Source: Actinacidiphila oryziradicis
GTDB taxonomy: Bacteria > Actinomycetota > Actinomycetes > Streptomycetales > Streptomycetaceae
Assembly (NCBI RefSeq): GCF_005047355.1
Contig: NZ_SUMC01000010.1
Location: 124,001 to 188,000 of the forward strand
Length of the DNA stretch: 64,000 nt
Reading direction: 5' to 3'
The notes beneath the pieces are model-generated. The model was not told where the DNA came from and made no database searches. It worked only from the letters and a program-made list of their open reading frames with translations. Below are positions 5,665-54,962 of the stretch, piece after piece; positions within the stretch are counted from its first letter, which is position 1; each line of letters begins with the position of its first letter. A program made the position numbers and the translations under genes.

Positions 5665-5730
<66 letters not shown>

Positions 5731-5755
5731 ACGCCAGGGACGTACGCCGCAGGTG

Positions 5756-36809: not shown

Positions 36810-37778
36810 TCAGGGGCAACAAGTAGCCGCAGGGGCCCTGTGGGTCTCGGTGGAGCCGGTCAGTACCCACGGGTCAGGGAGTGGCAGCGGCGGGGCTTGG
36901 GACGCAGGGGTGGGGGCGCAGGCACAGGGCATCGTCTGCAGGTACCAGTCCCCGTGTCGTGGGCAGCCCTGCCCGCCGGGGTCGGGTTGCCCTGCCTCCG
37001 CGGGGGCCTCGTTGGAGCCGTAGCAGTAGGTGCGCAGCGGCGGCTGGGAGTCGTGCGGGGCCAGGGTGCCGTCCCGGAGGGGCACGACGCGGTTGCAGCG
37101 GGCGCAGCGGCCGTACGGGATCTCTGCGGTGTCGCTCACGTGGTTCCTCGGGGCCTTGGGCTTGTACTGGGCGATCGGGCGCAGGTCCACAGCGGCGGGC
37201 CGGAGCCCGGCCAGGCTGCTGAGCTGGCCGGTTCTGCTCTTCGGGTTGGGGAACCGCTCGACCAGGTGCGCGAGGTGGACCTCGACCACCTCGCGGGTCA
37301 GGGCCTCGGGCCCGTTCCGCAGGGAGGGGAACGACTGGGCGAACAACGTGATCGCGCGGATGTCGGCGCCGACGGTGGCAAGGGCGACGCCGGTGGACAT
37401 TCGCCAACGGGCCCAGCGTTTGGTCAACTGCCGCAGCCAGAGCGGCTCGATGCCGGTGAACCGGAACCGGGCATCGCGGCCGGGGAAACCCAGACGGCGC
37501 AGAAGCCAGACGTCGCGGGGGAACTCCGCGTCCCAGCCGACGCCTTCTTCGACGTCGCGCAGATAGCCGATGGCGTCCAACAGAAAGCGGCGCTCGATGT
37601 GGCCGCGCTCGTTGGAGAAGCCCAGATATGTCATCCAGGCTTCGGGGCTGCGGTCCAGGAGTGAGGTGGCGCCGGCCGCGGGCAGCGCCCGCAGCAGTCG
37701 TCGGATGGAGTGGGGCCGGGTGATGGTGCGGCGTTCGTCGACTCGGCACTGGATCGCGAAGGCGACCCCGCAGATCAA
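36810..37778 (-). pseudogene. Integrase-like N-terminal part joined to a zinc-ribbon tail
   Basis: Residues 1-200 (LDRSPEAWMTYLGFSNERGH, RFTGIEPLWLRQLTKRWARW, ALATVGADIRAITLFAQSFP) resemble the N-terminal and core-binding parts of Tn554-type tyrosine recombinases. No catalytic domain follows. Instead, from about residue 225, there is YGRCARCNRVVPLRDGTLAP, then TYCYGS and three more Cys, a zinc-ribbon of a kind common in small Streptomyces proteins. The N-terminus is open to 37800 with no good start (TTG 37778 is the first). I read it as a deletion fusion of two genes; it may still be expressed. Confidence 0.5.
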
Positions 37779-37918: not shown

Positions 37919-38326
37919 ATGGATGCGGAGTTGGCCGCGCTGGCCGCGTCGGGGGCCACTACGGTCGTGCAGTTGATGGCTCAGGACGCCTGGACGACCG
38001 TCAGGGAGCGGGTGTTGGCGCTCTTTGGCCGTGGGGCGGCGGACAGGACGGAGTCGGTCAGGGCCGCGCTCGACGAGGCGCGGATCATCGTCGCGTCGAG
38101 CGGCGGGCGCGACGACGATCCGCGCCTGGTCGCGCTCACCTCCGACTGGCGGGAGCGGTTGCTCGTGCTGCTGCAACAGGAACCGGCGCTGGCCGAGGAG
38201 TTGCGGGCACTGGTGGCGCACGCGACCGATCAGCCGGGCTCCGTGCACAACGTCATCACCGGCGCCAAGGTGCGAGGCCCAGTGATCCAGGCCCACACCA
38301 TCACCGGTGACCTGCGCTTCGGCTGA
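37919..38326 (+). CDS. Small leader protein of the TIR/STAND operon
   Basis: 135 residues from ATG 37919 with AAGGGGG about 8 nt upstream. An N-terminal amphipathic helix (LAALAASGATTVVQLMAQDA) is followed by a helical domain (WTTVRERVLALFGRG, DWRERLLVLLQQEPALAEEL). The C-terminus is GAKVRGPVIQAHTITGDLRF, a short beta-strand motif that many Streptomyces proteins linked to STAND NTPases carry. It is the first gene of the operon, with 62 nt to the next. Perhaps an adaptor or sensor; the role is inference. The same motif type (GVIRGDVHIH) opens the convergent NB-ARC protein at 47895-50051. Confidence 0.75.
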   Translation: MDAELAALAASGATTVVQLMAQDAWTTVRERVLALFGRGAADRTESVRAALDEARIIVASSGGRDDDPRLVALTSDWRERLLVLLQQEPALAEELRALVAHATDQPGSVHNVITGAKVRGPVIQAHTITGDLRFG

Positions 38327-38388
38327 TCGCCACAACGGGCCACGCGGCACACGCTGTTGACGGGAACACGGGCACGAGGGGGCGGGTC

Positions 38389-40086
38389 GTGGAGCAGCGG
38401 CGATCGGAGCATCCGGCAGCGGACGGTCAGGCAGCGGGTCACCTGGCGAGGTTGTTCCTCGGTCCGACCCATGGGGGCAGTCGTGGGGCGTATCTGCCGG
38501 GTGGCTTCGACCTCTATCTGCGCGGCCGGGGCGACGACGCCGAACGACTGGTCCATCATCACGAAGCGCAGCACGTCCTGTTGACCGACACCACCGCGTG
38601 GGGTGCCGCTCTCGTCCTCACGTCGCAGGTGCCTCAATGGGCTCAGTTGTTCAACCAGTTGCTGGAGCTGTGTCGCACCACGCACGAGTCGTTCGCGACG
38701 TACATGAGTTGCAGCGTGGTCGCGGCGAGCACCGGTTCGCCCGAGGCGGCGCTCGCCTCGTACCCGGACTACGTGGGTCTGGTGGATCGGCTCGACCGCC
38801 ATCTCGCCGCGATTCCGGGAGAACACCGGCGCTCCCTCGCGGCGACGGCCCTGGCGCGGGCCTGTATGCAGACGCCGGTGATCGGACAGATGGCCGCGGC
38901 CTGGCCGCAGGCGTTGACACCCGGCGAGCTGCGCGAGATCGACGTACCGGACGGGCGTCTTCGCACCCTGTACCGGGACCCGGCCGGGCTGCCCGTCGAC
39001 GTGGTGGCGGCGGCCGACGAAGCGGTGGTGGCCGAGTTCGGGCCGCAGCCCCTGTCCGCCGACCTCCCCGGTGCCGGGGCGGCCGCGCTCGACGACCGCT
39101 TCGACGAGGCATGGGCCCGGTGGGAGGACACCGTGTTCGCAGGGCTCGCGGCCCGGCTGACCGAGGCGGGAGCAACGGTGCTCGGCAGTCACGAACATCT
39201 GCCCGCCGCAGCCGAGTTGGTGGCACGGGTCGCCGTGACCGTTCCCGGACTGCGGCTGACCGTCGACCTCGATCCGGACCCGCCGGACAGGCGCATGGTC
39301 GCCCAAGTGCTGCGCCAGGCCCGCCTGTGGCTGACGACGGAGCCGCGGCCTGCGCGTCTGATCACGTTCGGGCAGGACGTCGATCCGGAAGAGGTGGTGC
39401 GGGTCGTGGACGCGACCACCCGGGTGGCCGGGCGTCCGAACGTCGTGTTCGGGGCGCGCCTGCCGACCCGGCTGCTGGACGGTTACGCCTTCCCGGAGAG
39501 CGACCGCGCGCGACTCGCCGGTCTCGACGGGCCGGTACTCGCGATCCGGACCCTCGCCGACGACGGCACCGACCGCGACACCGACGCCGTCTGGCACGTC
39601 CGGCTCAGCGATCCGGCGGACGTCGCGGAGCTCATCGCCGCCTGGGACGGCGGCGCGGACGTGACGTGCTGCGTGGCCGCGAGCTGTCTCTCCGACGAGC
39701 GGTGGCGCACACGGTGGCTGCCCGTCCTCCAGGACGCGGCACCCGTGATCTGGCTGATCGACGTCCCCGTGGCGTCCCTGGCCGGTGAGTTCACCGGGGG
39801 CCGGACCGTGCACGGCATCTACCTGGATCTCGGGGCCAACCCGACCGGTGCGCGACGGGCGGTGGCCTTCAAGGTGTCCGGGCAGACGGGGGCGTGGCTC
39901 GCGGTGGCCGACGACGTCGGCATCCAGTTGCTGACCGGGCAGTTGGCGGACCTGCCGGGCATCGATCTGCGGATGACGGGCGCCAACTGGACGGGCGCGG
40001 TGCCCGCCCTCCGGCTGGTCCTGCTCGACCTGCTGCGGACCGAGTCGTACGTCGATCTGCGCGCCCTGGTGGACCACGGGAACTGA
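38389..40086 (+). CDS. HExxH-motif protein A of the TIR/STAND operon
   Basis: 565 residues from GTG 38389 after GAGGGGG. An HEAQH motif at residues 58-62 is followed 38 residues later by Glu100 in CRTTHESFATY, the layout of a zincin active site (HExxH…E). A Leu/Ala-rich middle contains ALARACMQTPVIGQMA near 165. The C-terminal half has alternating strands and helices, with CVAASCLSDERWRTRW near 430. It is paralogous to protein B (42654-44312) along its whole length. No membrane segment or signal peptide. Likely a metallopeptidase-like effector or a degenerate binding domain; not recognised as a named family. Seven nt separate it from the TIR gene. Confidence 0.8.
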   Translation: MEQRRSEHPAADGQAAGHLARLFLGPTHGGSRGAYLPGGFDLYLRGRGDDAERLVHHHEAQHVLLTDTTAWGAALVLTSQVPQWAQLFNQLLELCRTTHESFATYMSCSVVAASTGSPEAALASYPDYVGLVDRLDRHLAAIPGEHRRSLAATALARACMQTPVIGQMAAAWPQALTPGELREIDVPDGRLRTLYRDPAGLPVDVVAAADEAVVAEFGPQPLSADLPGAGAAALDDRFDEAWARWEDTVFAGLAARLTEAGATVLGSHEHLPAAAELVARVAVTVPGLRLTVDLDPDPPDRRMVAQVLRQARLWLTTEPRPARLITFGQDVDPEEVVRVVDATTRVAGRPNVVFGARLPTRLLDGYAFPESDRARLAGLDGPVLAIRTLADDGTDRDTDAVWHVRLSDPADVAELIAAWDGGADVTCCVAASCLSDERWRTRWLPVLQDAAPVIWLIDVPVASLAGEFTGGRTVHGIYLDLGANPTGARRAVAFKVSGQTGAWLAVADDVGIQLLTGQLADLPGIDLRMTGANWTGAVPALRLVLLDLLRTESYVDLRALVDHGN

Positions 40087-40093
40087 CGGGATC

Positions 40094-42661
40094 ATGCCGG
40101 GAATCTTCCTCAGTTACCGCAACATCGAGCGGTCGTACGCGCCGATGCTCGTCGATCGTGAACTCTCCCGCCGGTTCGGCCCGGAGAACGTGTTCCAGGC
40201 CGGTCGGTCCAATCTGCCGGCCGTCCACTTCCCGACCGAGATCGACCGGCGGGTCGACGAGTGCGACCTGCTCATCGCCCTCATCGACCGGCCGTGGGTG
40301 GGCGAGGACCTGCATCTGCTGCGGGAGCCCGGCGACTGGGTCCGGCGGGAGATCGCCCGCGCGCTGGGGCAGGGCAAGCGGGTGCTGCCCGTGCTGCTGG
40401 ACGGGGCGGAGATGCCCAGGACGGCAGAGCTGCCCGCCGACATCGCGCCCCTGACGCGGAACATCGCCCTGCGGATGCGTCCGCGTACCGTCGACACCGA
40501 TCTGCTGCGGCTGATCGGTGAGGTGGAGCGGCTGGTACCCGAACTCGTCCTGGTGACGCTCATGGACTCGGCCCCGCCCAAGAACGTCGGCGGGCCCGCT
40601 CTGCTCCGCGCCGAGCACCAGGTCCTCCCGTTCCGGCACCGCGGCGAACTCGACCTCCTGGCCGAGTGGTGCTCGGCGCCGGCCGGGCCACCGGTCAAGC
40701 TGGTCGTGGGTGCCCTGGGCGCGGGCAAGACCCGGCTCGGGCTCCGGCTGGCCGCACAGGTGCGCGGGTCGGGCCGGCCCGGCGGGCTGCTGTCGGTGAC
40801 CGCTCCGGCGGAGTGTCTCGATCGGCTGGGAGAGATCGGCAGTCCCTGCCTGGTCGTCCTCGACGACGCCGAGGCGCGTCCGGTACAGGTCCGCGCGGCG
40901 CTGCGCTCGCTCGCCGTCGCGCCCGAAGCCCCGGCCCGGCTGCTCCTGTTGGCGCGCTCCGGCGGTGACTGGTTGGACGACCTGCGCGACGACGCCGACG
41001 ACGCGGTCGCGGACCTCGTGGACAGCATCGTGCCGCTGTCGCTGGCACCGCTGCGGCCGGCCGAGGGGGACTTCGCCACGGCGTGCGGCGCGTTCGCCCG
41101 GCATCTCGGACTGCCCCTCCCGTCCCTCCCCTCCGATCGGCCGGAGACACCCACCCTGCTCGAACTGCAGGCCGCCGCTCTCACCCATGTCCTGTCCCCC
41201 GACACGCCGTTGGACCGACCCCTGCGCCGGATTCTGGGGTTGGAGCGGGCGTACTGGCGCAAGGCGGGGACAGCGTTCGGGCTGCCGGTGTCGAGCGATC
41301 GCGTCCTGGCGGAGGTCATGGCGACGGTGACGCTGTTCGGTGCGGCCTCCGAGCCGGAGGCGGATGGCCTGCTGACCTCCCTGCGGGCGTTCCGGGGCGG
41401 GCCGGTGCATGCCATCGACTCCTGCCGCGACCTCCTGCGCACCGTGCTGCCGGGGCCGGCTCCGCTGAATCCGCTGCAACCGGAGCAGTTGGCGCAGGAG
41501 TTCGTGGCGGAGTTCCTGGACTCCGACTACCGGCTCGCGGACCTCCTGGACGGTGTCTCCGACGAGCAGGCACGGCGGGCCCTGCGGAACCTGGGCCGGT
41601 GTCTGGAGCGTCATCCCCGGATCAGTGGTCCCGTCGAGGACTTCCTCGCCGCGGCCCCGGGCCGACTGCTGCCCCTGGCGTTGACGGTGCTGCCCTCCGT
41701 ACCTCAACCCCGGCTCCTGGTCTCGGCCATGTCCGGCGCCCTGGGCCGCACCCCCCAGGGCGAACTCCCCGCCGTAGTCGATGCGTTGCCACTGCGCAGC
41801 GACGCCCTGGCCCGGTTTGCCGTGGACGCGACCGAGCGCGCCCTCGGCGCACGAGACGCCGACGCGGGTGACTTCACCACGGCCCGGCTGGCCCGTCGGC
41901 TCTCGGTGCGGCTGACCTACCTCGGGGAGCGTCCCTCGGACGCCGTGGAAGCGGCTCGTTCGGCCGTAAGAGCCCTGACCGCGCTGACGGTCAGGGAGTC
42001 GGCACACGTGGAGTCCGTGGCCGCGGGCTCGGGCCCGGGCTCGGTCAACGCCGAACTGGCCGAGGCGCACGCCGCGTTGGCACTGGCGCTCGACCTCGAT
42101 CCGTCGTCCAGGGACGAGGCTGTCGCGGTCGGTGAGACGGCCGTTACCCAGTACCGCGCTCTGCCGGGCGGGGACCGGCACGGCGCGGCGCTGGCAACAG
42201 CCCTGCACAACCAGTCGATCCGGCTCCGCCGGGTCCGCGCGATGCCGGCGGCCCTCGCGGCCGCGACCGAGGCCCGCCAGCTCGTCGAGCCCCTGCACGC
42301 GGAGCGGCCGACGCGATTCCGGTCGCTGTACGCGGACGTCCTAGACAACCTGTCGATCGTCACCCATCTGACGGGCCACCCCGAAGAGGCCGAACGGCTC
42401 GGTCGCGAAACCCTCGCCCTGCGCCGCGCGTTGGCCGCCGCCCGACCGGACGCCTACCGATCACAGTTGGCGGGCACGCTGTTCAATCTCGGTCTTCTCT
42501 TCACCGAGAACGAGCGAAAAGGGGCGGAGGCGAGGCAACTGTGGGACGAGTCGCTCTCGATCTACGATGCTCTGTCCGTTCGTCGGCCGGGGCACTACGA
42601 CGAGCCGCGTGACCGTGTCCGCGCCCACCTCGACCGTCGGAAGGCGGACCACGATGACTGA
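40094..42661 (+). CDS. TIR-STAND NTPase-TPR protein
   Basis: 855 residues. The TIR domain covers about 1-150: IFLSYRNIERSYAPMLVDRE, DECDLLIALIDRPWVG, then DWVRREIARALGQGKRVLPV, with Glu at the position of the TIR NADase catalytic residue (WVRRE). The STAND NTPase starts near 185: P-loop GALGAGKTRLG near 206-216, Walker B LVVLDDAEA near 254. The C-terminal third is helical, with TPR-like units (AVAVGETAVTQYRALPGG, AERLGRETLALRRALAA). This is the domain order of bacterial NLR-like proteins that degrade NAD+ or oligomerise on sensing a trigger. Its end overlaps the next start by 8 nt. Confidence 0.88.
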   Translation: MPGIFLSYRNIERSYAPMLVDRELSRRFGPENVFQAGRSNLPAVHFPTEIDRRVDECDLLIALIDRPWVGEDLHLLREPGDWVRREIARALGQGKRVLPVLLDGAEMPRTAELPADIAPLTRNIALRMRPRTVDTDLLRLIGEVERLVPELVLVTLMDSAPPKNVGGPALLRAEHQVLPFRHRGELDLLAEWCSAPAGPPVKLVVGALGAGKTRLGLRLAAQVRGSGRPGGLLSVTAPAECLDRLGEIGSPCLVVLDDAEARPVQVRAALRSLAVAPEAPARLLLLARSGGDWLDDLRDDADDAVADLVDSIVPLSLAPLRPAEGDFATACGAFARHLGLPLPSLPSDRPETPTLLELQAAALTHVLSPDTPLDRPLRRILGLERAYWRKAGTAFGLPVSSDRVLAEVMATVTLFGAASEPEADGLLTSLRAFRGGPVHAIDSCRDLLRTVLPGPAPLNPLQPEQLAQEFVAEFLDSDYRLADLLDGVSDEQARRALRNLGRCLERHPRISGPVEDFLAAAPGRLLPLALTVLPSVPQPRLLVSAMSGALGRTPQGELPAVVDALPLRSDALARFAVDATERALGARDADAGDFTTARLARRLSVRLTYLGERPSDAVEAARSAVRALTALTVRESAHVESVAAGSGPGSVNAELAEAHAALALALDLDPSSRDEAVAVGETAVTQYRALPGGDRHGAALATALHNQSIRLRRVRAMPAALAAATEARQLVEPLHAERPTRFRSLYADVLDNLSIVTHLTGHPEEAERLGRETLALRRALAAARPDAYRSQLAGTLFNLGLLFTENERKGAEARQLWDESLSIYDALSVRRPGHYDEPRDRVRAHLDRRKADHDD

Positions 42662-44312
42662 CCATCTGGCCCGGCTGTGCTTCGAGGGGCTGGGCAGCAC
42701 CGGCCGCTACACCCCGCACGCTTACACCCTGCGGCTCCAGGGCGTCGAGCAGTCCACCGACCACGTGGTCTACTTGCACGAGGTGCATCACGCGACGCTG
42801 AACGACGTCACCGCCTGGGGCAGCGCGTTACACGTCTACGCACGCCTCCCCGCAGCCGCGGGCCAGGCCTTCGTCCACCTGCTGGACGCCTGCCGCACCA
42901 CCCATGAATCGCTGGCCACGTTCGCGAGTGTGCGGCTCGCCGCCGCCCGGCACGGCGTGCTGGACGGCGTGCTCGCCGCCTATCCGGACTACGTGGGGCT
43001 GTACGACACGGCCACGCGGCTGGTCCAGGAGATTCCGGGGCCCGGTCGCAAGCAACTGGCGGTGAGCGCCCTGGCGCGGCTGTGCATGCAGACCCCGGTC
43101 CTCGACACCGTCGACGAGGTCGGTCTCGAAGCGTTCCGCCTTGCCGACGTGCCCGACGCGGACCGGCCCGACAGCCGCTGGAGATGGTTCGTCCGCCAGG
43201 GCCCGGCCGCGCTCGCCGCCGCGGCCGAGGCCGCCGATCGCATGCTTGCCGAGCGCTTCGGCCCGGCCGCGCTGGCCACCGACGGGCCCGACGGCGACCT
43301 GTACGAGTCGACGGCAAGCGTCCACGATGCCACGTGGGACGCCTGGGAGGAAGCGGCGTACGAACATCTGCGGTCCCTGATCGGCGCGACGGGGGCCCGC
43401 ACGCTGGACCTGAACGGCCATCGGGAGAGCTCCGAGGCACTGATCAGCTCGGTCGAGGCGGTCCACGGCGACATCGGGCTGCGCGTCCCGATGAGCGACG
43501 AACAACGGCAGGACGACGCCGCCGTGGCCAGTTCGGTGCTCCAACAGGTACGGCACGACCTCGCCGCGGGAGACCGGCACCGGGCGCGGCTGCTGGAACG
43601 GACGCCGGCCGACCTGGTGGACGTACTCGCGCGGCGGGCCGTGCACGGCGACCGGCCGGCGCTGATCGTGGACGCCCGACCGGTCCGGCGGCTCGCGGCT
43701 CTCTACCGGTGGCCGGACGACACCCTGCCGGAGCCCTCGGGCGAGCCTCTGGTCGCCGTACGCGCTGTCGTCGACCACACAGAAAACGACACAGAGGACG
43801 GCACAGATCCGGACAAGGTCGTCGGACACGCGCTCGTGCCGGAGCCGGACGCGCTGCCCGAACTGGCCGAGCGATGGGGTGGCCGCGGCCCGCTCGCCGC
43901 CTGTGTGAGCGCGAGCTGTCTGGTCGACACCGCTTGGACGCGGCGCTGGCTGGAGCCGCTCGGCGCCCTCGGGCCGCTGTTCGTGCTGGCCGACGTGGAG
44001 CCCGACCGGTTCGTCCCGGCCTGGGTCAGGGACGACAGACAGGTCAACGCCCTCACGATCACCGTGGAGGAGACCGGCCGCCGCCGCGCCGCACTCCTGT
44101 TCACCGCGGGCACCGCCTGGTGGCTGGTGCTGGCCGAGGACGTCACCGTGGCGCTCATGGTCGAGTACCTGGGCAGGCGGCTCGGCCCCCGGCTGAGCAG
44201 CGACCTCGCACCGTTCGAGCCGGTTCGTGACGCCGCCACGGCGGTGATCGGCCATCTGCTCGCCACCGAATCGTTCGTGAGCTTCGACGCGCTGGGGAGC
44301 GGCCATGTCTGA
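42654..44312 (+). CDS. HExxH-motif protein B of the TIR/STAND operon
   Basis: 552 residues from ATG 42654, inside the end of the TIR-STAND gene. HEVHH occupies residues 42-46, with Glu85 in CRTTHESLATF as probable third ligand; LARLCMQTPVLDTV near 140 and CVSASCLVDTAWTRRW near 420 match protein A. Retaining the zinc motif and its spacing in both paralogues argues that it matters. No secretion signal. The two may form a heterodimer, or one may be substrate-recognising; this is inference. It overlaps the following gene by 8 nt. Confidence 0.8.
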   Translation: MTDHLARLCFEGLGSTGRYTPHAYTLRLQGVEQSTDHVVYLHEVHHATLNDVTAWGSALHVYARLPAAAGQAFVHLLDACRTTHESLATFASVRLAAARHGVLDGVLAAYPDYVGLYDTATRLVQEIPGPGRKQLAVSALARLCMQTPVLDTVDEVGLEAFRLADVPDADRPDSRWRWFVRQGPAALAAAAEAADRMLAERFGPAALATDGPDGDLYESTASVHDATWDAWEEAAYEHLRSLIGATGARTLDLNGHRESSEALISSVEAVHGDIGLRVPMSDEQRQDDAAVASSVLQQVRHDLAAGDRHRARLLERTPADLVDVLARRAVHGDRPALIVDARPVRRLAALYRWPDDTLPEPSGEPLVAVRAVVDHTENDTEDGTDPDKVVGHALVPEPDALPELAERWGGRGPLAACVSASCLVDTAWTRRWLEPLGALGPLFVLADVEPDRFVPAWVRDDRQVNALTITVEETGRRRAALLFTAGTAWWLVLAEDVTVALMVEYLGRRLGPRLSSDLAPFEPVRDAATAVIGHLLATESFVSFDALGSGHV

Positions 44313-44853
44313 TCCGCTCGACCCGGTCCTCAAGGGTGCGGACGTCGACGCGCAACTGCTGCGGCGCGCCGAGCTGGAAGCGGTCGGGCGAACCGTCAGC
44401 GGCCTCGACCCGGACGAGTTCATCGACGCCGTCACCCAGGTCTGCGCCCGGTCCTGGGACGACGAACGCACCAGGCCCCCGGGCTACTTCGAGATCCACG
44501 GCCAGAACTGGTGGATCGACACGTCCGGGACCGAGAACCGGCGCGGACTGCTCCACGCCGTGACGGCGGCCGCGCTGGTGGACGCCATCGGACTCCCCCG
44601 CAGCACCGCCTGGGTGGCCCGCGTCCTCGCCGGCGTACTAACCGTCCAATCGATCAGCGGGAGCGCGTCGACCGGGCTGTGCTTCGTCCTCGAACGGCAC
44701 GACGCGAGCCCGCTGCCGGACCATCTGGCCCATGACGTCCACCCCGGCGACTACGCCGAGTTCGCCACCGCGGTCGCGACCGCCGCCGAGGTGCTGTCCC
44801 TGTCCGTCGGCGGCTCGATCCGGTTCACCGACCCGCCCCGGCCCGCGCCATGA
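44305..44853 (+). CDS. Small operon protein of unknown function
   Basis: 182 residues from ATG 44305. Acidic N-terminal helix region (LEAVGRTVSGLDPDEFIDAV), then a Trp-rich strand segment (YFEIHGQNWWIDTSGTENRR) and a Gly/Ser-rich SISGSASTGLCFVLERH. No known domain. It lies between HExxH protein B (8-nt overlap) and the second TIR protein (4-nt overlap), so it is translated in step with them, perhaps as a chaperone or inhibitor. Confidence 0.75.
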   Translation: MSDPLDPVLKGADVDAQLLRRAELEAVGRTVSGLDPDEFIDAVTQVCARSWDDERTRPPGYFEIHGQNWWIDTSGTENRRGLLHAVTAAALVDAIGLPRSTAWVARVLAGVLTVQSISGSASTGLCFVLERHDASPLPDHLAHDVHPGDYAEFATAVATAAEVLSLSVGGSIRFTDPPRPAP

Positions 44854-47342
44854 CCATCTCGTCGCCGGACGCCGGCGAACCGCCGTACGACATCTTCATC
44901 TGTTACGCCTGGGACGACTCCAAGCAGTTGGCCGACGAGCTTCACCAGGCGCTGACCGAGGTCGGTCTGAACGTCTTCCAGGACGAACCGAGCATGGACG
45001 ACTGGGACGAGATGGCCCCCGAGATCCGGGCAGCGCTCCTCTCGTCGCGCACGCTGCTCCCGTTGGTCAGCCCGGGTTTTCCGCGCAGCCCGCACTGCCG
45101 GCAGGAAGTGCACCTCGCGCTGGACTGCGCCTTCCGGCTGGGGCGCACGGACCGGGTCATGGCTGTGACGTCCGGGGTGCGGCCGGACGACATCCGGCCC
45201 AGCGAGCTCAGCCGGTACCGCACCCCGCGCCAGGGCAGGAGCGCCCGGGAGCTGGCCGTCGGCATCGCCGAGCGGGTGCGCGCGCTGGCGGCCGAGGACG
45301 ACCGCACCTTCGGCGACGCTCCCCTGCCGTCGTCCCCCGACTGGTTCCCCGAACATCTGCCGGGCGGTCGGCACTTCCACGGCCGGCACGCCGAACTGTG
45401 GGAGATCCACGAGGGGCTGCGGGCCATGGACAAGGCCCGGAACATGGGACATCCCGTGGTGTCGGTGAGCGGTGTGGGCGGGCAGGGCAAGACCGCGCTG
45501 TGCGCCCAGTACGCCCGGCTGTTCGCCCTGGACCACTCTGGCGGTGTGTTCCTCGTCCGGCTCTCCGGCAGCGACCGGCGCGTCCGGGCCTCGCCGGACG
45601 CGGTGCGCGCCCAGTTCACGGAAGGGCTTCGTGCCATCGGGCTCAAGCTCGAGCTGACCGCCGACGAACTGGGGTCGGACCGTCTCCCCGGGGCGCTGCG
45701 AACCAGGTTGAAGAACCTCGCGCAGCCGTATCTGTGGATCGTGGACGACATCCCCTCCGGCTTCGACGCGGAACTGCTCCCCGAGTTGTGCGCGCCGACC
45801 GGGAACGGCAGGACGCTGCTGACCACCCGCGGACGGTTCACGAAGGGGGTGTCGGCGGAGATCGTGCTCGGCGGCCTCGATCCGCACGACGGACTGTCCT
45901 TGCTGACCGGTCACCGTCCGCCGGCGGCACGTGCGGAGACGAGGGCCGCGAGGCTCCTGACCGAACTCCTGCACGGCCACCCCCTCGGCCTGACCCTGGC
46001 GGCGGGGCTGACGACCCAGGACGACTTCGAGGGATACGCCGAGCTGTACCGACAGCTCGCGACGCCGGATCCGGAGGACGACCTGCTGGAGCTCGTCCAG
46101 TACCTGAGGGCGGAACTCCCCGCCGGGTACGCGCGGCCGTTCGCGGCGACCATGCTGCGCAGTTTCCGGGGGCTCACCGACGCGGGCCGCGACGTGCTGT
46201 CCGCCGTCGGTGTCCTGGCGGCCGAACCGGTGCCGCTTACGCTGCTCGACGAGATCATCGCCGGGTCCGGCGCTCCCGGCGGACCGGCGCGCGTGGCGGA
46301 CGGCCTCGCACACGCGGTGCGCCACGGACTGGCAGAACTGACGGAATCGACGGATCTGACGGAACTGACGGACGGTCCGGACGACACACCGGACTCCCGT
46401 GCCTGCGCGGTGCACCCGCTGGTCGCCCGCGCGACCCGTGTGCTGAATCCACCGCCGACACGGCGAAAGCTCCGCGACGCGGCCGTGGTCGCGCTGACGC
46501 AGGCCCTCAGTGCCACGCGGCACTCGTTCACCCACCGTGCGGTCGCGCGCAGTCTGCCGCACGTACGAGCGGTGACGGGACTGCTGGCGGGCACGGACCA
46601 GTGGAGTATCGGCGCCGACGAGAGGTATCTGCTCGACGAGGCCGGTCGGGCGTACGAACAACTGGGCGACGGAGAAGCCTCGTTGCGGCTCTACGCCCCG
46701 CTGGCCGAGGCCTGCGAGGAAGCACCGGAGTGCGACGAGTACACCCGGCTCGTCGTCCGGCTCCATCTCGCCTCGGCCCACTTCCGGTACGGGCAGTTCT
46801 CGGCGGCGCGCAGTCTCCAGGAGGACGTCGTACCCCGGATGCGGGCCCTGCTCGGGCCCGCGGCACGGGAGACCCTCACCGCTCAGGACAACCTGGCGAA
46901 CACCCTCGGCGCCCTCGGCCAGCACGAGGCGTCGCGCCTGCTGCACACCGAGGTCTACCGGGCGCTGCGCGACGGGACGGGACCGACGGACGCCGACACA
47001 CTGCGCGTACTGGGGAACCTGGTCATCGCCGTGGGAAGGTGCGGCGACACCGACGCGACACGCCGACGGATGCGGCTGACCGCCGTCCGGTACGCCCGTG
47101 GGGCCCACGTCCTGTGGCGGCGCGCCGCGAAGGCCAAGGGGCCGAAGTCCTGGGAGGCACTGGGCGCGCTCGACATCATGAACACCCTCGGGAAGAACCT
47201 TCTGGCGCTGGGGAAGAAGGACGAGGCACGCGACGCCTTCCGCACGGTGTGGGAGGGGCGGCGAGCGGTTCTGGGAGAACACCACCCGGACACCCTCGAC
47301 GCCTGGGAGAACACGATCATCGCGGAGGAAGGTCTGTCGTGA
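44850..47342 (+). CDS. TIR-NB-ARC-TPR protein
   Basis: 830 residues. The TIR domain spans about 1-140: YDIFICYAWDDSKQLADELH, NVFQDEPSMDDWDEMAPEIR, then SPGFPRSPHCRQEVHLAL, which has Glu in the catalytic-type SxxCxxE position. The NB-ARC starts near 170: P-loop VGGQGKTALCAQ near 208-219, Walker B YLWIVDDI, the sensor-like LLTTRGRF and GHPLGLTLAAGL. TPR units cover about 590-830 (TLTAQDNLANTLGALGQHEA, DIMNTLGKNLLALGKKDEA). It is a second NLR-like protein in the same operon, different enough from 40094-42661 not to be a recent copy. Overlaps both neighbours by 4 nt. Confidence 0.88.
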   Translation: MTISSPDAGEPPYDIFICYAWDDSKQLADELHQALTEVGLNVFQDEPSMDDWDEMAPEIRAALLSSRTLLPLVSPGFPRSPHCRQEVHLALDCAFRLGRTDRVMAVTSGVRPDDIRPSELSRYRTPRQGRSARELAVGIAERVRALAAEDDRTFGDAPLPSSPDWFPEHLPGGRHFHGRHAELWEIHEGLRAMDKARNMGHPVVSVSGVGGQGKTALCAQYARLFALDHSGGVFLVRLSGSDRRVRASPDAVRAQFTEGLRAIGLKLELTADELGSDRLPGALRTRLKNLAQPYLWIVDDIPSGFDAELLPELCAPTGNGRTLLTTRGRFTKGVSAEIVLGGLDPHDGLSLLTGHRPPAARAETRAARLLTELLHGHPLGLTLAAGLTTQDDFEGYAELYRQLATPDPEDDLLELVQYLRAELPAGYARPFAATMLRSFRGLTDAGRDVLSAVGVLAAEPVPLTLLDEIIAGSGAPGGPARVADGLAHAVRHGLAELTESTDLTELTDGPDDTPDSRACAVHPLVARATRVLNPPPTRRKLRDAAVVALTQALSATRHSFTHRAVARSLPHVRAVTGLLAGTDQWSIGADERYLLDEAGRAYEQLGDGEASLRLYAPLAEACEEAPECDEYTRLVVRLHLASAHFRYGQFSAARSLQEDVVPRMRALLGPAARETLTAQDNLANTLGALGQHEASRLLHTEVYRALRDGTGPTDADTLRVLGNLVIAVGRCGDTDATRRRMRLTAVRYARGAHVLWRRAAKAKGPKSWEALGALDIMNTLGKNLLALGKKDEARDAFRTVWEGRRAVLGEHHPDTLDAWENTIIAEEGLS

Positions 47343-47884
47343 CATCGGAACAGAACGGGGTCGCCGGGAGCAGGAACCCGTATGTGGCCGTCTACGCGCA
47401 ACGGCTCGATGTGCAGGGCGCCGGGCATCCCGGCACCGTGGCGACACTGCTGAACGTGCTGGGACATGGGCTGTCCCACTCCGCCGGCCAGGACGCGACA
47501 GCGGCGAACCGACCGGTGCCGAGCGAACTACCGCCAGGAACCGGCCCGGAGGGGGTCAGGCTGGAGGGGGATCACGTCGACCTGCTGGCGGAGGCGCTCG
47601 AACGGGCCGTAGCGCTGCAGGAGGAGGAGACGGCGAGCCATGGGCCCGATCATCCGCGGGCGCTGCTGGCGACCTGTCTGCTCGCGCACGCGCTCGCCGC
47701 CGCGGACCAGTTGGACGGACAGCTGGAAGCGGCACAGGTGCTGATCGACGACGCCCATGACGGACTGGTCGAACTCGCGATGTCCCCGGGAGCCGTCGAC
47801 CCCGACGCCGTGCGGATCGCCGAGGCGCTGCACCAGTGGATCCACGGCCGGATCGAGGACGGCGACGACGAGTCCGACGAGTGA
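47339..47884 (+). CDS. Terminal small operon protein, TPR-like
   Basis: 181 residues from GTG 47339, overlapping the previous stop (GTGA). N-terminus NPYVAVYAQRLDVQGAG, a helical middle (LAEALERAVALQEEETA, ALLATCLLAHALAAADQLDG, the latter TPR-like), and a very acidic end (RIEDGDDESDE). No family recognised. It is the last gene of the operon; its stop lies 10 nt from the stop of the convergent NB-ARC gene. Confidence 0.75.
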   Translation: MTSEQNGVAGSRNPYVAVYAQRLDVQGAGHPGTVATLLNVLGHGLSHSAGQDATAANRPVPSELPPGTGPEGVRLEGDHVDLLAEALERAVALQEEETASHGPDHPRALLATCLLAHALAAADQLDGQLEAAQVLIDDAHDGLVELAMSPGAVDPDAVRIAEALHQWIHGRIEDGDDESDE

Positions 47885-47894: not shown

Positions 47895-50051
47895 TTACCG
47901 GTCCAGCGTCGCCAGGTCCGCCGCGACCCTGTCGGCCTTCGCGGTCCCGAGCCCTTGGTACAGGGCCAGGGCCTGCGTCCAGTGACAGCGTGCCGCCTCG
48001 GTGTCGTGGCGGGCGGCGGCCACGGCACCGAGTCGGTGCAGCGCCCGGGCCTCCTCGTAGGTGCTGCCGCAGCGTCGGGCGACGTCGAGTGCCCGTAGGT
48101 ATGCCTCCTGAGCCCGGTCGTCCTCGCCCGCCCGGTGCAGGACGAGACCCAAAGTGCTGAAACCCTTGGCCGCCTCCTGGTGGAGGTCCAGATCGAGGAA
48201 GCCGTCCAGCGCCTCCTCGACATGGCGCACGGCGTCGGCGAAGCGGCCCAGTCCCAACTCGTTGAGTGCGATGGCCCGCAAGGTGATGGCGATCTTCCGG
48301 GCGTCCGCCTCCTGCCGGTAGAAGTCCAGCGCCCGGTGGTTGTCCCGCAGGGCTTCCGCGTACTTCCCCTGCCCCCGAAGCATGACGGCCCGGTTGGCCA
48401 GCATGTCGCTGAGCCCGTGCCGGTCCCCCACTTCCTCGTAGAGCCGCAGGGCGCACGCGTAGTGCTCGGCCGCCTCGTCGTGCCGACCCCTCTCCAGCAT
48501 CGCTCGTCCGAGGTTGTTGTGGGTGGTGGCCTCCGCGCCCCGGTCTCCGGAACGCCGGCAGGCGGCCAGGGCGAGCGAGTGCGTCTCGATCCAGTCGTCC
48601 CAGCGCTTCGTCAGGAAGAAGTAGCCGCGCAGAACATAGGCCAGCTGCCAGCGCCGTCCGTCCAACTCCGGTCGGTCCAGGCGGCACAGAGCCACCAGGT
48701 TGCGCCGCTCCTCGTCGAGCCAGCTCAACGCGTCGCCGTAGTCGTCGATCCGGGGTCCCGGTGAGGGCACGCCGTCGAGTGGCATCCGGTACCGATGCCT
48801 GTTCAGGACGCGGTCGGCTCGGTCGGCGGTGTGCAGGTAGTAGTCGAACAGACGGCACAGCGAGGCCTGCCGGGCGGTGTCGTCGTCGAGGGCCTCGCCG
48901 AGTTCGCGGGCGTAGACGCGCAGCAGGTCATGGATGTCGAAACGGCCGGGGGCGGACTCCGCGATCATCTGGGCCCGCGCCAGCCGCATGAGCAGGGCTA
49001 CGGCCGTCCGGTGGCCGGTGCCCGCGCCGTGGCCGGTGTCTGTGCCGATGCCCATGAGGGCCGCCGCGGCGTACGCGTCGACGCCGTACCCGGGATGGAG
49101 TCCCAGCGCGCGGAAGAGCCCACTGTCCGCGTCCCCCAGCCGGTGATAGGACCAGGAGAAGACCGTCCGCACGGCGGAGCGTGGGTCGTCGCCGGAGTCG
49201 AGCACGTCCAGCCGGGTCCGTTCGTCGTCGAGTTCCGCGGCGAGCGCGGTCAGTGGGAGCGTCGGCCGGTCGGCGGCGTGCTCCGCCGCGATCCGCAGGG
49301 CCAGGGGAAGGCCCGTGCAGCGGCGCGCCAGCGACGCCGCGGCCTCGCGCTCCCGGGAGACCCGCTCGCCCAGGCTCTTCTCCAGCAACTCGACCGCGTC
49401 GTGGGCCGGCAGCCTGCCCACGGAGAGGAGTTTCGCCGCGTACTGCACCGCCAGACCCGTCAGTGGCTGGCGGCTGGTGACGACCACGACCGAGGAGGAC
49501 GCCCCCGGCAGCAGGGGGCGCACCTGCTCCTCGGACGCCGCGTTGTCCAGCACGATCAGCAGCCGGCGACCGCTGACGGCGGTCCGGTAGCGCGCCGCAC
49601 GGTCCTCGAGCGTCGTGTCGCTCTCGGATCCCGTCTCGTCCAGCGCCCGGAGGAACCCGGCCAACGCGGCGTGGGCCGGCACCGGTTGTTCAGGACCGTA
49701 TCCGCGCAGATCGACGTACAACTGGCCGTCGGGGAACGCGTCGACCACCCGGTGGGCCCAGGCGACGACGAGCGCCGTCTTGCCCACGCCCGCAGTGCCC
49801 GACACCACGGCCAGGGCGGGCAGTGGGGAAGCGTCCGCCACGACGGCGTCAAGCCATGCCGACTCCGCCGTCCGGCCGGTGAAGCGCCGTGTCCCCATGG
49901 GGAGTTGTCGGGGTACCGGAGCGGCGGTGCGCTCGGCATGGATGTGCACGTCGCCGCGGATCACACCCGTCTGTACGACGGTGCCTGCCCGTCCGTCGAG
50001 CCGGTTCTCCACACCGGGCAGGTGCGGACCCGCCCTGTCGTCGCGCGCCAT
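47895..50051 (-). CDS. NB-ARC/TPR (AfsR-like without DNA-binding domain) protein
   Basis: 718 residues from ATG 50051 after GGGGGA; an upstream start at 50213 adds 54 poorly supported residues. It begins with VVQTGVIRGDVHIH, akin to the leader-protein motif at 37919-38326. The NB-ARC domain follows: P-loop SGTAGVGKTALVVAWA near 83-98, Walker B LLIVLDNAA, VVVTSRQPLTGLA and CTGLPLALRIAAEH. The winged-helix region has RFDIHDLLRVYARELG near 355-370. TPR units fill 440-710 (THNNLGRAMLERGRHDEAAE, ALRDNHRALDFYRQ). The SARP DNA-binding domain of AfsR-type regulators is absent. Converges on the TIR operon; may sense or control it. Confidence 0.85.
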   Translation of the reverse strand: MARDDRAGPHLPGVENRLDGRAGTVVQTGVIRGDVHIHAERTAAPVPRQLPMGTRRFTGRTAESAWLDAVVADASPLPALAVVSGTAGVGKTALVVAWAHRVVDAFPDGQLYVDLRGYGPEQPVPAHAALAGFLRALDETGSESDTTLEDRAARYRTAVSGRRLLIVLDNAASEEQVRPLLPGASSSVVVVTSRQPLTGLAVQYAAKLLSVGRLPAHDAVELLEKSLGERVSREREAAASLARRCTGLPLALRIAAEHAADRPTLPLTALAAELDDERTRLDVLDSGDDPRSAVRTVFSWSYHRLGDADSGLFRALGLHPGYGVDAYAAAALMGIGTDTGHGAGTGHRTAVALLMRLARAQMIAESAPGRFDIHDLLRVYARELGEALDDDTARQASLCRLFDYYLHTADRADRVLNRHRYRMPLDGVPSPGPRIDDYGDALSWLDEERRNLVALCRLDRPELDGRRWQLAYVLRGYFFLTKRWDDWIETHSLALAACRRSGDRGAEATTHNNLGRAMLERGRHDEAAEHYACALRLYEEVGDRHGLSDMLANRAVMLRGQGKYAEALRDNHRALDFYRQEADARKIAITLRAIALNELGLGRFADAVRHVEEALDGFLDLDLHQEAAKGFSTLGLVLHRAGEDDRAQEAYLRALDVARRCGSTYEEARALHRLGAVAAARHDTEAARCHWTQALALYQGLGTAKADRVAADLATLDR

Positions 50052-50238
50052 TGGTCCCCCTCCCACGGTGCCGGCGGCTCGGTCCACTCCCGGGGAAGCT
50101 CGCTCCAGCGGCTCAGGACGGGCGTGGACGGGCCTTCCCAGACATACCCCTCGACGGGGATCGACAGTCCGACGATCACGTCGGCCGACGAACATGCCAC
50201 CGACCGCGCTCACGAAACACCTCCCGCCCCGCCAGCCG

Positions 50239-50640
50239 TCAGGCTTCGGCTCCGCGCACCGCGACCGGGTCGCCGGCCGACGTCAGCGGGTGGACGGCGG
50301 TCATGGCCTCGTCGAGGAGCCCGGGCAGCGGGAGACGGACGTCCTCCTGGACCCAGGCTTCGACGGCGGCGTCCAGACAGCTCAGAGCGCTGGCGATCAG
50401 GGCGGAGGCCGCGGGGTCGGGACGGCCGGTGGTGGCCGACGTGATGCGGCGGGTCACCTCGGGCAGGAGCAGTTCCCGCCAGCGCCGGTTCCGCTCGTGA
50501 AGGCGCGCGCGGGTGGAGGGTGACTGCACGACCACCTGGGCGGTCTGCAGGGCGGCGCCCAGATCCTTGGCCTGCTCGCGGACCGGCGGTTCGAGCGCGT
50601 GCCGCAGCGCCGTCCACACCGGTTCGTCCTCCGGGCGCAC
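50239..50640 (-). pseudogene. C-terminal remnant of a TetR regulator
   Basis: VWTALRHALEPPVREQAKDL, then RARLHERNRRWRELLLPEVT and ALIASALSCLDAAVEAWVQE, is a typical TetR C-terminal ligand domain (TetR_C of actinobacterial type). The DNA-binding half is missing: coding in this frame ends near 50640 and a plus-strand fragment begins. Deletion remnant. Confidence 0.7.
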
Positions 50641-50648
50641 ACCAGGGT

Positions 50649-50790
50649 CACCGAGGTCGCCGAAGCCATGCACTGGTTCTCCGACAACTGGGTGTCCTGG
50701 GGCCACTGGACCGAAATGTACGAGCGCGCCGCCGAGGCCGGAGCGGCCCTGGGCGAGCCGTGCTGGAAGCCACCCACCGTAACCTCATTA
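50649..50790 (+). pseudogene. Fragment of an unknown gene
   Basis: The plus strand reads VTEVAEAMHWFSDNWVSWGH, then WTEMYERAAEAGAALGEPCW, with good codon bias but no start and no continuation after about 50780. It abuts the TetR remnant in opposite orientation, marking a recombination joint near 50640-50650. Confidence 0.35.
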
Positions 50791-51911: not shown

Positions 51912-52189
51912 GTGCCCGTCGACCACCGGCTTGTACGGGTCCAGGCGGTAGCCCCCTGGGGGATCCTCTTCCGGGGCTCGGGCCAAGCCGAGTCCATGGC
52001 CTTGCGGACTGTCCGCCATGACAGGTTGTCCTTGCGCTCAAGCTCGCGGGAACCAGCCAGGCGGGCGGCGTGTCGCAGGTAGTTCGCCGACGGCAGACGG
52101 CAATGCCCGGATCGGACTGGAGATGCGTTGCGGAGACATGTCAAAGTCGACCTGTTCCGAAAAACAGCAAGTCGCAGAGGGGATAGCCC

Positions 52190-52552
52190 GTGAGCACCGA
52201 TCTGGCCCGGCCCGGTTTCTCCACCACCGTGGAGGCTCTGCGGCTGCGTCACTGGCGGCTCGGCGCCGGCCAGCCCACCCTGGTCCTGGACCAGTTCACC
52301 GATGTCGACTTCAAGCTCGTCGTCGATGACCGGGGTGATGTCCACGTCAACTCGCGTGACGGCCGCTTCTATCTCGGCTGGTTCCCCGACGGCCGTCCCG
52401 GCACGACCGGCGAGGGATGGAAGCTCGCCGTCACCGGCACGGCTAAGGTCCCTGGCTACCACGTCACGTTCGACCCCCAGACCCCGGCCGGTATCGTCGC
52501 CGCCGCCGTGGCCACAGTGATCGCCACATCCCGCCGCGTTCCGTTCCCCTGA
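52190..52552 (+). CDS. DUF317 domain protein, short form
   Basis: 120 residues from GTG 52190 after GAGGGGAT. TVEALRLRHWRLGAGQPTLV, then VHVNSRDGRFYLGWFPDGRP and GYHVTFDPQTPAGIVAAAVA, match one DUF317 unit; full Streptomyces DUF317 proteins usually have two, so this is a half-length form. Function unknown. The family is often found on integrating elements of Streptomyces, which fits the setting. Locally followed by 1.2 kb with little coding. Confidence 0.75.
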   Translation: MSTDLARPGFSTTVEALRLRHWRLGAGQPTLVLDQFTDVDFKLVVDDRGDVHVNSRDGRFYLGWFPDGRPGTTGEGWKLAVTGTAKVPGYHVTFDPQTPAGIVAAAVATVIATSRRVPFP

Positions 52553-52928
52553 ACCCGGGGCCGGACCGGCCACATCCCCGATGCTGGTCAGGGTGGAGGC
52601 GGCGCCGATCAGGGCGAGGAAGGCTCCGGTATTTCGACGAGCATCTCGTTGAGGGTGTGCATGCCCCACGACGAGTCGATCAGATCGACCGCATGCGCCC
52701 GGTAGGACACCAGACCACCTCCCCGTCACCAAGGTGAAGATTCTGGCATGAGCATGTTGTGTCTTGAATTGCACCGCTGGATCGCTGCTCCTTCAACAGG
52801 ACTGGGACGCCCCCAGCCTGAGTGGCATACAAACTGCTGTGGTCCTTGACCGTGAGGTCGCACAGAAGCTGCGGTACCGGCAGTACTGCCGGATGCATGG
52901 CGCTCGGCGGGGATTCGCCCACGGCAGA

Positions 52929-53173
52929 TGCGACTTTTCGAGATAGGTGGCACCAGGGTCGCGGGCTGACCTGGTCTTTGGCGGCGAAGTTGTCGCGCCG
53001 CTTGACATCAGAAGGTCGATTTTGTTGACACCTGCTGCAAGTTTTTAGCCCAGTTGTCACCAGAGGCGGGACGTTTCCGCTGGTCGCAAGAGTCGGAGAC
53101 CATCCATCGCCGTCGGCGCGTGCCGCTGGTGCCAGTCAGCTCGATCCGATGTCACCTATCTCGAAAAGTCGCA
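52929..53173. repeat. 245-bp MITE-like unit with 21-bp perfect terminal inverted repeats
   Basis: TGCGACTTTTCGAGATAGGT(G) at 52929-52949 is exactly complementary to 53153-53173, with 203 nt between and no coding capacity. A further pair, CTGACCTGGT (about 52967) and ACCAGGTCAG (about 53252), lies partly outside. It could be a miniature inverted-repeat element or a paired protein-binding site near the integrase. Confidence 0.55.
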
Positions 53174-53753: not shown

Positions 53754-54962
53754 GTGGTCCTGTCCGACCCGATCAAGAAGCTCCCGCCGAACGCGAAGGG
53801 GCAGATCCGGTACCGGTTCGTGGTCGACGTAGGGATCGACCCAGCCACCGGGAAGCGCAAGCAGCTGACACGCACCTTCGACACGTTGAAGGCAGCGAAG
53901 GCCGAGTACGCACGCATCACGAACCGTCGCCACGAAGGGACGTTCGTATCGCCCAACAAGATCACCGTGAACGAATGGCTCGATCAGTGGCTTGCCAAGA
54001 AGGCGGAAGACCTGGAAGAGACTACGATCTACAACTATGCGGTGACCCTGGGCCGTGTCCGGGGGAAGCTTGGGCACATCCGGCTTCAGGAACTCACCGA
54101 GGACCACGTCGAGACGTGGATGACGTGGGCGCTTCGGGAGGGCCGCGTTCGTGGCGGCAAGGCGGGCACGGGCCTAGGGGTGACCTCGGTAGAGATGTCC
54201 CTTGCGCGGCTGAAGGACGCACTTAACCGGGCGGTGACGCGGCGCTTGGTCGCCGTGAACGTTGCCCAAGAGGTCACGATCCCTCGGAAGGCACGCAAGG
54301 CGGAGCGCAGGACCAAGAAGGTGTTGCAGCCCTGGAATGTAGCGGAGGTTCACGCCTTCGTGCTCGCGGTGAAGGACGATCGGCTGTATGCCCCCCTCCT
54401 TCTCTCCCTGATGGGCCTGCGTCCGGCAGAGGTCTGCGGCCTGCGTTGGTCGGACATCGACCTGAACGCGGCCACCCTGGACATATCCAACACGCGAACA
54501 CTCATGGGTAACAAGACGGTGGTGGAGAAGGACACGAAGTCGATGGCGGGCGAGCGACTGCTCCCCCTGCCCGCGTTGGTGCGTGAGGCCCTGAAGGAGT
54601 TCCGCGCCACGCAGGCGGCCGAAAAGCTGGCGGCGGGGGAGGCGTACAGCGGCAGCGGGTACGTGATCGTGGATGAACTCGGCGCCGCGCTGAATGGTCG
54701 GCAGTTGCGCGTGAGGGCATACAAGATCATGGACGAGAACGGTTTTCGCAGGGTCCGCTTGTACGATGTGCGCGCGTCGTGCTTGACGTACCTCGCGAAC
54801 AGTGGTGTCCCGGATCACATCCTGGCCCGGTGGGCGGGGCACACCAATGTGAAGACGACCAAGAAGTGGTACGTGAAGCCGGACGTGGAGGATCTGCGTC
54901 CGGCGGCGGAAGCCTGGGGAGGTTTGGCGAGCCTCGCGACCCCCTTCAGTGAGAAATTGTGA
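53754..54962 (+). CDS. Tyrosine recombinase, integrase of the element
   Basis: 402 residues from GTG 53754 after AAGGAG. An N-terminal arm-binding domain (RYRFVVDVGIDPATGKRKQL, about 19-38) and a core-binding domain (TVNEWLDQWLAKKAEDLEET, about 71-90) are present. Catalytic residues: Arg in LMGLRPAEVCGLRW, Lys in VVEKDTKSMAG, Arg in RLYDVRASCLTYL, His in ARWAGHTNVK and nucleophile Tyr in TTKKWYV. The box II His of HxxR is Tyr (YDVR), a tolerated variation. Its location at the edge of the element, 19 nt before the chimeric pcaL start, marks it as the enzyme that inserted the element. Confidence 0.9.
   Translation: MVLSDPIKKLPPNAKGQIRYRFVVDVGIDPATGKRKQLTRTFDTLKAAKAEYARITNRRHEGTFVSPNKITVNEWLDQWLAKKAEDLEETTIYNYAVTLGRVRGKLGHIRLQELTEDHVETWMTWALREGRVRGGKAGTGLGVTSVEMSLARLKDALNRAVTRRLVAVNVAQEVTIPRKARKAERRTKKVLQPWNVAEVHAFVLAVKDDRLYAPLLLSLMGLRPAEVCGLRWSDIDLNAATLDISNTRTLMGNKTVVEKDTKSMAGERLLPLPALVREALKEFRATQAAEKLAAGEAYSGSGYVIVDELGAALNGRQLRVRAYKIMDENGFRRVRLYDVRASCLTYLANSGVPDHILARWAGHTNVKTTKKWYVKPDVEDLRPAAEAWGGLASLATPFSEKL

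What the first reader, a model, noticed from the sequence alone, without database searches (positions are those of the whole stretch)
37919..47884. Seven-gene operon with two TIR-STAND/NB-ARC-TPR proteins and two HExxH paralogues: a possible undescribed conflict system
Order: small leader, HExxH A, TIR-STAND-TPR, HExxH B, small protein, TIR-NB-ARC-TPR, small acidic protein. Six of the seven are packed with 7-nt gaps or 4-8 nt overlaps, implying fixed stoichiometry. Both TIR domains keep the Glu expected for NADase activity and both NTPases keep P-loop and Walker B. I know NLR-like and AVAST-type defence systems and the actinobacterial STAND conflict systems described by Aravind and colleagues, but not this pairing of two TIR NLR-like proteins with two zincin-like proteins.
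Basis: partly seen in the sequence, partly recalled or inferred. Interest (0 to 1): 0.85.

Follow-up and report, generated by a model that had tools for sequence, protein, structure and literature searches.

The report
TIR immune operon with paired metalloprotease-like proteins
A rare, gene-dense bacterial locus joins suicide-type TIR immune receptors to a duplicated, undescribed family of metalloprotease-like proteins, and related genomes keep its core together, so it looks like an uncharacterised cell-defence system.

Summary
The core is A–TIR1–B–S, read directly also in Paractinoplanes (L006). TIR2 joins it only in some loci; leader, TIR2 and the last small gene were not found in L006. A third NB-ARC–TPR gene (N3) just outside the stated coordinates lies beside the core in both loci read. 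Distant single relatives sit beside an S-like partner in five loci; in a sixth, beside a ComEC-like hydrolase and a WD40 protein. A, B and S match no Pfam, NCBIfam or PADLOC family above chance level. Best reading: an NLR-like abortive-infection system in which TIRs destroy NAD+ and an A/B metalloprotease acts on or through S. Linkage is well supported; the immune role is likely; protease action and S's role are inferred. An amyloid-signalling link between leader and N3 is only suggestive.

The parts
37919..38326 (+). Leader: 135 aa helical-type protein ending in a Gly/Val/Gln-rich motif; possible Bell-like effector or adaptor
   Evidence: ORF; no Pfam, NCBIfam, PADLOC or PHROGs family above chance; two paralogues in own genome, one of them next to an ORF that reads like an NB-ARC protein (read by eye)
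38389..40086 (+). A: HExxH protein, 565 aa, predicted metal-dependent enzyme
   Evidence: 36 homologues; HExxH intact in 34 of 37 rows, the rest gaps; downstream Glu in 35 of 37; model pLDDT 83.6
40094..42661 (+). TIR1: TIR-STAND-TPR protein, 855 aa
   Evidence: sub-threshold Pfam matches; weak SARM1 match; 42.8% identical orthologue between A and B in L006; motif residues kept there
42654..44312 (+). B: paralogue of A, 552 aa
44305..44853 (+). S: small partner, 182 aa
   Evidence: 36% identical gene after B in L006; weak profile match to the small partners of stand-alone HExxH genes
44850..47342 (+). TIR2: TIR-NB-ARC-TPR protein, 830 aa, member of a wider family
47339..47884 (+). Small acidic protein, 181 aa, GTG start
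   Evidence: ORF and 4-nt overlap; no family
47895..50213 (-). N3: convergent NB-ARC-TPR protein, 772 aa (a start at 50051 giving 718 aa is also possible); linked third NLR, outside the finding
   Evidence: NB-ARC and TPR above Pfam cut-off; best of 13 own-genome matches of the NB-ARC-TPR gene upstream of A in L006
34112..34531 (+). Integrase-like fragment upstream (context)
   Evidence: Phage_integrase 24.6 bits, below the cut-off of 27.1
53754..54962 (+). Tyrosine recombinase downstream (context)
   Evidence: Phage_integrase 61.4 bits, above cut-off

Best explanation
The locus is an NLR-like abortive-infection (regulated cell-death) system with a proteolytic arm. Shown: a co-inherited core A-TIR1-B-S with intact TIR, P-loop and HExxH residues, and an NB-ARC-TPR protein beside it in both loci read. 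Inferred: STAND proteins with TPR repeats sense an invader and oligomerise; their TIR domains cleave NAD+; the duplicated A and B act together, probably as a heteromeric zinc metalloprotease, on S or with S as adaptor, to switch on or amplify the response. TIR2 and the small genes are additions present in only some lineages.
For: Same order A-TIR1-B-S in L006. A and B each form one group at 100/100 support, and their distances correlate at r=0.858 (0 of 10,000 permutations). HExxH and downstream Glu conserved in both. TIR Glu and P-loop kept. N3 linkage. Sparse presence and a tyrosine recombinase nearby. A relative of A/B overlaps a ComEC-like MBL gene in L021; MBL pro-nucleases are activated by partner proteases in known antiphage systems (PMC12799240, abstract and sections 4 and 8).
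Against: No phage, NAD+ or protease experiment. No solved fold matches the A model, so a zincin fold is unproven; HExxH also occurs in iron/2-oxoglutarate enzymes (PMC12636437, passages). One third paralogue in L006 reads HKAHH, so HExxH is not always needed in this family. S of this locus relates only weakly to the stand-alone partners. In Dactylosporangium sp. NPDC005572 the A and B tags are far apart and on contigs of different length. Direct reading of the whole core rests on two loci. PADLOC gives no system. N3-type proteins are also regulators.
Confidence: 0.5

Rival explanations
1. A peptide-modification system like the FxSxx-COOH systems: A/B are peptide-tailoring enzymes (peptidase or iron/2-oxoglutarate hydroxylase), a small gene encodes the precursor, and TIR2 is the coupled TIR-AP-ATPase-TPR effector described by Kaur et al. 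2020.
For: TIR2 matches the FxSxx TPR model (E 8.5e-44, 150 bits); the published arrangement MPTase + small variable protein + TIR-AP-ATPase-TPR is alike (PMC7159879 section 24); a B12/radical-SAM gene lies downstream of the L006 locus.
Against: FxSxx_TPR score is half its cut-off of 300. No TIGR04267 match in the own genome or in 13 family members. No radical SAM among nine products. 0 of 223 ORFs between 33 and 56.5 kb end in FxSxx, and the acidic protein has at most 3 acidic residues in a row where 4 define that type.
Confidence: 0.15
2. A developmental or stress regulator locus rather than defence: STAND-TPR proteins act as AfsR-type regulators and A/B process a regulatory protein (S).
For: N3 and its L006 counterpart score against the AfsR model, far below its cut-off; the stand-alone S-like partner has a winged-helix-like end in a low-confidence model.
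Against: Sparse presence, TIR domains with catalytic residues kept, a nearby recombinase.
Confidence: 0.15
3. Two systems side by side: leader and N3 form an amyloid-signalling pair (Bell-like effector plus NLR with matching BASS-type motif), and A-TIR1-B-S-TIR2 is a separate unit.
For: Leader C-terminus and N3 N-terminus (718-aa start) carry similar Gly-Val-Val-Gln motifs and score best of 166 C-termini against N3; only these two of 166 proteins match a pattern, which was written from the two themselves; published architecture alike (PMC7889193 passages); one leader paralogue next to an NB-ARC-like ORF.
Against: 193 of 5,000 shuffles reach the score, the next C-termini score 32 against 33, and N3 ranks only fourth of 166 N-termini against the leader. 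The two genes are not adjacent. N3 stays with the core in L006 without a leader.
Confidence: 0.12

Closest known systems
FxSxx-COOH / MPTase peptide-processing systems with TIR-AP-ATPase-TPR (Kaur et al. 2020, PMC7159879; outline, section 24 and passages seen)
   Same: HExxH-type protein, small variable protein and TIR-AP-ATPase-TPR gene in actinobacteria; TIR2 is a distant relative of the FxSxx TPR protein.
   Different: Different HExxH family, duplicated; no radical SAM product, no FxSxx precursor, no MoxR-vWA partner; an additional unrelated TIR1.
Protease plus MBL pro-nuclease pairs of Hachiman, AVAST, Lamassu, DRT and Canu (Tuck et al. 2025, PMC12799240; abstract and sections 4 and 8 seen)
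   Same: A protease-like gene kept tightly with a partner effector or substrate and carried by several systems; relative L021 has an MBL partner.
   Different: HExxH instead of trypsin or caspase type; in the window the partner is S, not an MBL nuclease; no activity shown.
Bacterial BASS/Bell amyloid NLR pairs (PMC7889193, PMC8086366, PMC12261475; passages seen)
   Same: Small helical-type protein with C-terminal motif and NB-ARC-TPR protein with N-terminal motif.
   Different: Genes not adjacent; motif match weak; Bell profile not available here.
alpha-ketoglutarate-dependent HExxH peptide enzymes (PMC12636437; passages seen)
   Same: HExxH motif in proteins of zincin-like character.
   Different: No TIGR04267 match in 13 family members; no precursor peptide recognised.

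Membership tests
FxSxx-COOH peptide-processing system | Precursor ending in FxSxx | tested here: not met
   0 of 223 ORFs of 25 aa or more between 33,000 and 56,500
FxSxx-COOH peptide-processing system | Radical SAM-SPASM enzyme | tested here: not met
   no match among nine products of the locus at E up to 1; neighbours outside were scanned only in part
FxSxx-COOH peptide-processing system | TIR-AP-ATPase-TPR protein of the FxSxx equivalog | tested here: not met
   TIR2 150.2 bits against a cut-off of 300
alpha-ketoglutarate HExxH enzymes (TIGR04267) | Match to the family profile | tested here: not met
   none at E up to 1 for 13 members; none in own genome
Zincin-type metalloprotease | HExxH plus a downstream conserved ligand-type residue | tested here: met
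   A and B family alignments
Zincin-type metalloprotease | Zincin fold | tested here: inconclusive
Zincin-type metalloprotease | Metal-dependent peptide hydrolysis | not testable with these tools
   needs biochemistry
TIR-NLR abortive-infection system | TIR domain with catalytic Glu fused to STAND and TPR | tested here: met
   TIR2 by Pfam and conservation; TIR1 by sub-threshold matches and motifs
TIR-NLR abortive-infection system | NAD+ loss and phage protection | not testable with these tools
   needs experiment
AVAST, Thoeris and other PADLOC systems | Profile matches that together define a system | tested here: not met
   only TIR- and TPR/NTPase-level matches in window products and L006 relatives; PADLOC-DB 2.0.0 of 2023
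MoxR-vWA ternary systems | MoxR AAA+ and vWA proteins in the operon | tested here: not met
   no such Pfam match among nine products
BASS/Bell amyloid NLR pair | Shared motif at effector C-terminus and NLR N-terminus | tested here: inconclusive
   193 of 5,000 shuffles reach the score; circular pattern test
BASS/Bell amyloid NLR pair | Adjacent or overlapping genes | tested here: not met
   leader and N3 are separated by the six-gene block and convergent

The most novel reading that the evidence does not exclude
A previously undescribed family of immune metalloproteases (HExxH plus a downstream His-Glu, with partner S) serves as a movable proteolytic module of bacterial NLR systems, as trypsin- and caspase-type proteases do elsewhere. 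Here it was duplicated once into an obligate A/B pair and built around a TIR-STAND receptor; in another genome it is coupled to a ComEC-like nuclease.
Probability: 0.35. Interest if true: 0.86.

Novelty: new variant of a known kind. Interest (0 to 1): 0.68.

Why it matters
If true, it adds metalloproteases to the proteases known to act in bacterial NLR-like immunity and offers a compact, testable system with paired enzymes, TIR receptors and a candidate substrate. Ten literature searches of the held library, seven of them on such domain combinations, listed no paper whose title or abstract start describes this gene set; most listed papers were not opened, and papers outside that library were not searched.

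Tried and rejected
Rejected: that all seven genes form one fixed unit (no hit in L006 for leader, TIR2 or the acidic protein at E up to 1e-3). Rejected: membership in FxSxx, TIGR04267, MoxR-vWA or a PADLOC system (see Membership tests). Led nowhere: PDB sequence search with the A profile, best E 0.15; Foldseek and VIA-align with the A model; S-family model, pLDDT 61.2, weak winged-helix-like and other matches; Pfam on seven S-family members, at most one member per family, EAD8 E 0.12; B against plasmids and phages and A/B profile against viral contigs, no homologue; leader against plasmids, none; N3 against plasmids, 149 records, all under 60% identity, two regions inspected without an annotated leader-like neighbour being recognised; direct repeats in 33.0-56.5 kb, three short two-copy families; GC content, no step at the operon.

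Limits: in the larger genome samples only 3 to 7 candidates per genome were scored, so absence is weak evidence. Doubtful short hits at E 5e-4 to 9e-4 were set aside. Contig sharing is inferred from identical longest-contig length of clusters, not read from DNA, and searches scored only the candidates sharing most words. Gene calls in comparison loci come from my own script. TIR1 was not searched in the large protein database. In one search the alignment left out P0003, P0004, P0035 and P0036; one search used all 36.
Full report
WHAT IS THERE. The seven ORFs are at the stated places and tightly packed; after the 62-nt gap behind the leader, junctions are a 7-nt gap and overlaps of 8, 8, 4 and 4 nt. 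A and B share 34% identity over nearly their full length. TIR1 and TIR2 are both TIR-STAND-TPR proteins but show no significant similarity to each other. TIR2 passes Pfam cut-offs for TIR and TPR; TIR1's matches are all sub-threshold, though its TIR part matches SARM1 weakly and its key residues are kept in the one orthologue aligned. The nearest A homologues are 92-96% identical proteins of four Streptomyces strains.

THE REAL UNIT. In Paractinoplanes deccanensis (L006) the order is an N3-like NB-ARC-TPR gene, A, TIR1, B, S, then a convergent third paralogue whose HExxH reads HKAHH. Leader, TIR2 and the acidic protein gave no hit there. Locus tags put A and B two tag steps apart, so probably one gene apart, in Streptomyces fuscichromogenes, a Streptosporangiaceae MAG and Paractinoplanes deccanensis, the last being the L006 genome again; in Dactylosporangium sp. 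NPDC005572 the two tags are far apart and on contigs of different length, which counts against or reflects a broken assembly. TIR2 relatives share a contig length with A and B in two cases (52,100 and 22,436), with B alone in two (23,021 and 67,685) and with A alone in three, all Streptomyces (259,965; 322,602; 431,069). Most of the 59 TIR2 relatives listed are on contig lengths at which no A or B was listed, so TIR2 belongs to a wider family.

A THIRD NLR. The convergent gene at 47895-50213 lay outside the finding. The NB-ARC-TPR protein immediately upstream of A in L006 has exactly this gene as its best of 13 matches in the whole own genome, 447 bits against 263 for the next. Position and orientation differ between the two loci. 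With two loci this suggests, but does not prove, that it belongs to the system.

A AND B. In a tree of 34 proteins, A (12 rows) and B (12 rows) each lie on one side of a branch with 100/100 support; of ten rows in no group, five single relatives from other loci fall outside and five further database rows fall near A or B. In A the HExxH residues are intact in 34 of 37 rows (3 gaps) and the downstream Glu in 35 of 37 (2 gaps), the preceding His in 33 (2 Gln, 2 gaps). In B the HExxH Glu is kept in 58 of 60 rows (one Lys, one gap) and the downstream Glu in 58 of 60 (2 gaps). Across 13 members, 19-58% identical to B, these positions are among the few invariant or nearly invariant columns. That pattern fits a metal-dependent enzyme needed in both copies. 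The A model (pLDDT 83.6) puts HExxH and His99-Glu100 on successive helices but has no significant solved relative, so the fold is unproven.

THE OLDER MODULE. In the sample of 250 genomes around L006's, 6 had any relative, two of them being the genomes of L006 and L008. In L007, L008, L022, L023 and L024 the next gene overlaps or abuts it and encodes a 195-218 aa protein of one family. Window S and L006 S match that family only weakly (hhalign probability 68.7, E 4.5e-5 for one comparison). No TIR gene lies directly next to these five pairs among the genes called, but neighbours were profiled only in part, and in L008 a TIR-like stretch was read by eye about 4 kb downstream. In L021 the HExxH gene instead overlaps a gene for an MBL-fold protein with ComEC-type matches (Pfam Lactamase_B above cut-off; ComEC structures E 5e-9; PADLOC LmuA and RTasMBL about 22 bits; NCBIfam ComEC below cut-off) and faces a WD40 protein with an APAF1_C match just below cut-off, cut by the contig end. 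In Hachiman, AVAST, Lamassu and DRT systems MBL nucleases are paired with trypsin-like proteases, and in Canu with a caspase; activation by the protease was shown for some of these (PMC12799240; abstract and sections 4 and 8). This is the best indirect argument that the HExxH family is a protease acting on a partner.

DISTRIBUTION. Besides the own genome, relatives were found in 0 of 199 same-family genomes (query B), 0 of 395 of the phylum, 0 of 34 of the genus, and, bar one doubtful short match in each, 0 of 392 of another genus of the family (query A) and 0 of 375 of the phylum with the broader profile; in the phylum of L007, 1 of 188 besides one doubtful match, namely L007's own genome. 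Only a few candidates per genome were scored. Yet four A and four B clusters at 92-96% identity are named as Streptomyces. With the recombinase at 53.8 kb and a sub-threshold integrase fragment at 34.1 kb this fits an accessory, horizontally moved locus. Island borders were not tested.

MECHANISM. Shown: gene content, linkage, conserved catalytic-type residues, one duplication. Inferred: TPR-STAND sensing and oligomerisation, NAD+ cleavage by TIR domains, A/B acting as a pair, S as substrate or adaptor. Leader and N3 might form an amyloid-signalling effector/receptor pair: the architecture fits the BASS/Bell description (PMC7889193 passages) and a leader paralogue lies next to an NB-ARC-like ORF, but the motif match is weak (193 of 5,000 shuffles; N3 fourth of 166 N-termini) and the genes are not adjacent. 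The main rival, a peptide-modification system, lacks the defining parts that could be tested.

VERDICT. Observation confirmed; interpretation partly supported. A new variant of NLR-like TIR conflict systems with a protein family (A/B, and partner S) that none of the libraries searched covers.

Noticed in passing
L021:9004-11905 and L021:12264-15068: A relative of A/B with a C-terminal extension overlaps a ComEC-like MBL-fold gene and faces a WD40 protein with a near-cut-off APAF1_C match, cut by the contig end: a possible metalloprotease-nuclease pair.
   Followed up: partly
L006:15884-17329 (-): Third, degenerate HExxH paralogue (HKAHH) convergent with the L006 operon, next to a B12-binding/radical-SAM gene.
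   Followed up: partly
L035:993-8796 (own genome): Leader paralogue (5377-5793) in a cluster that reads like a cyclase, CRP-like regulator, kinase-like and vWA-like conflict system; annotated by eye only.
   Followed up: no
L034:8508-10308 (-) (own genome): Leader paralogue directly before an ORF with a P-loop that reads like an NB-ARC protein; not profiled.
   Followed up: partly
window 50239-50706 (-): 155-aa ORF matching only the TetR_C_14 (MftR C-terminal) domain, without a DNA-binding domain match.
   Followed up: no
window 36810-37778 (-): 322-aa ORF upstream of the leader without a Pfam or NCBIfam match.
   Followed up: partly
window 52001-54000: GC content drops to 0.640 just upstream of and into the recombinase gene, against 0.71-0.73 across the operon.
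   Followed up: no
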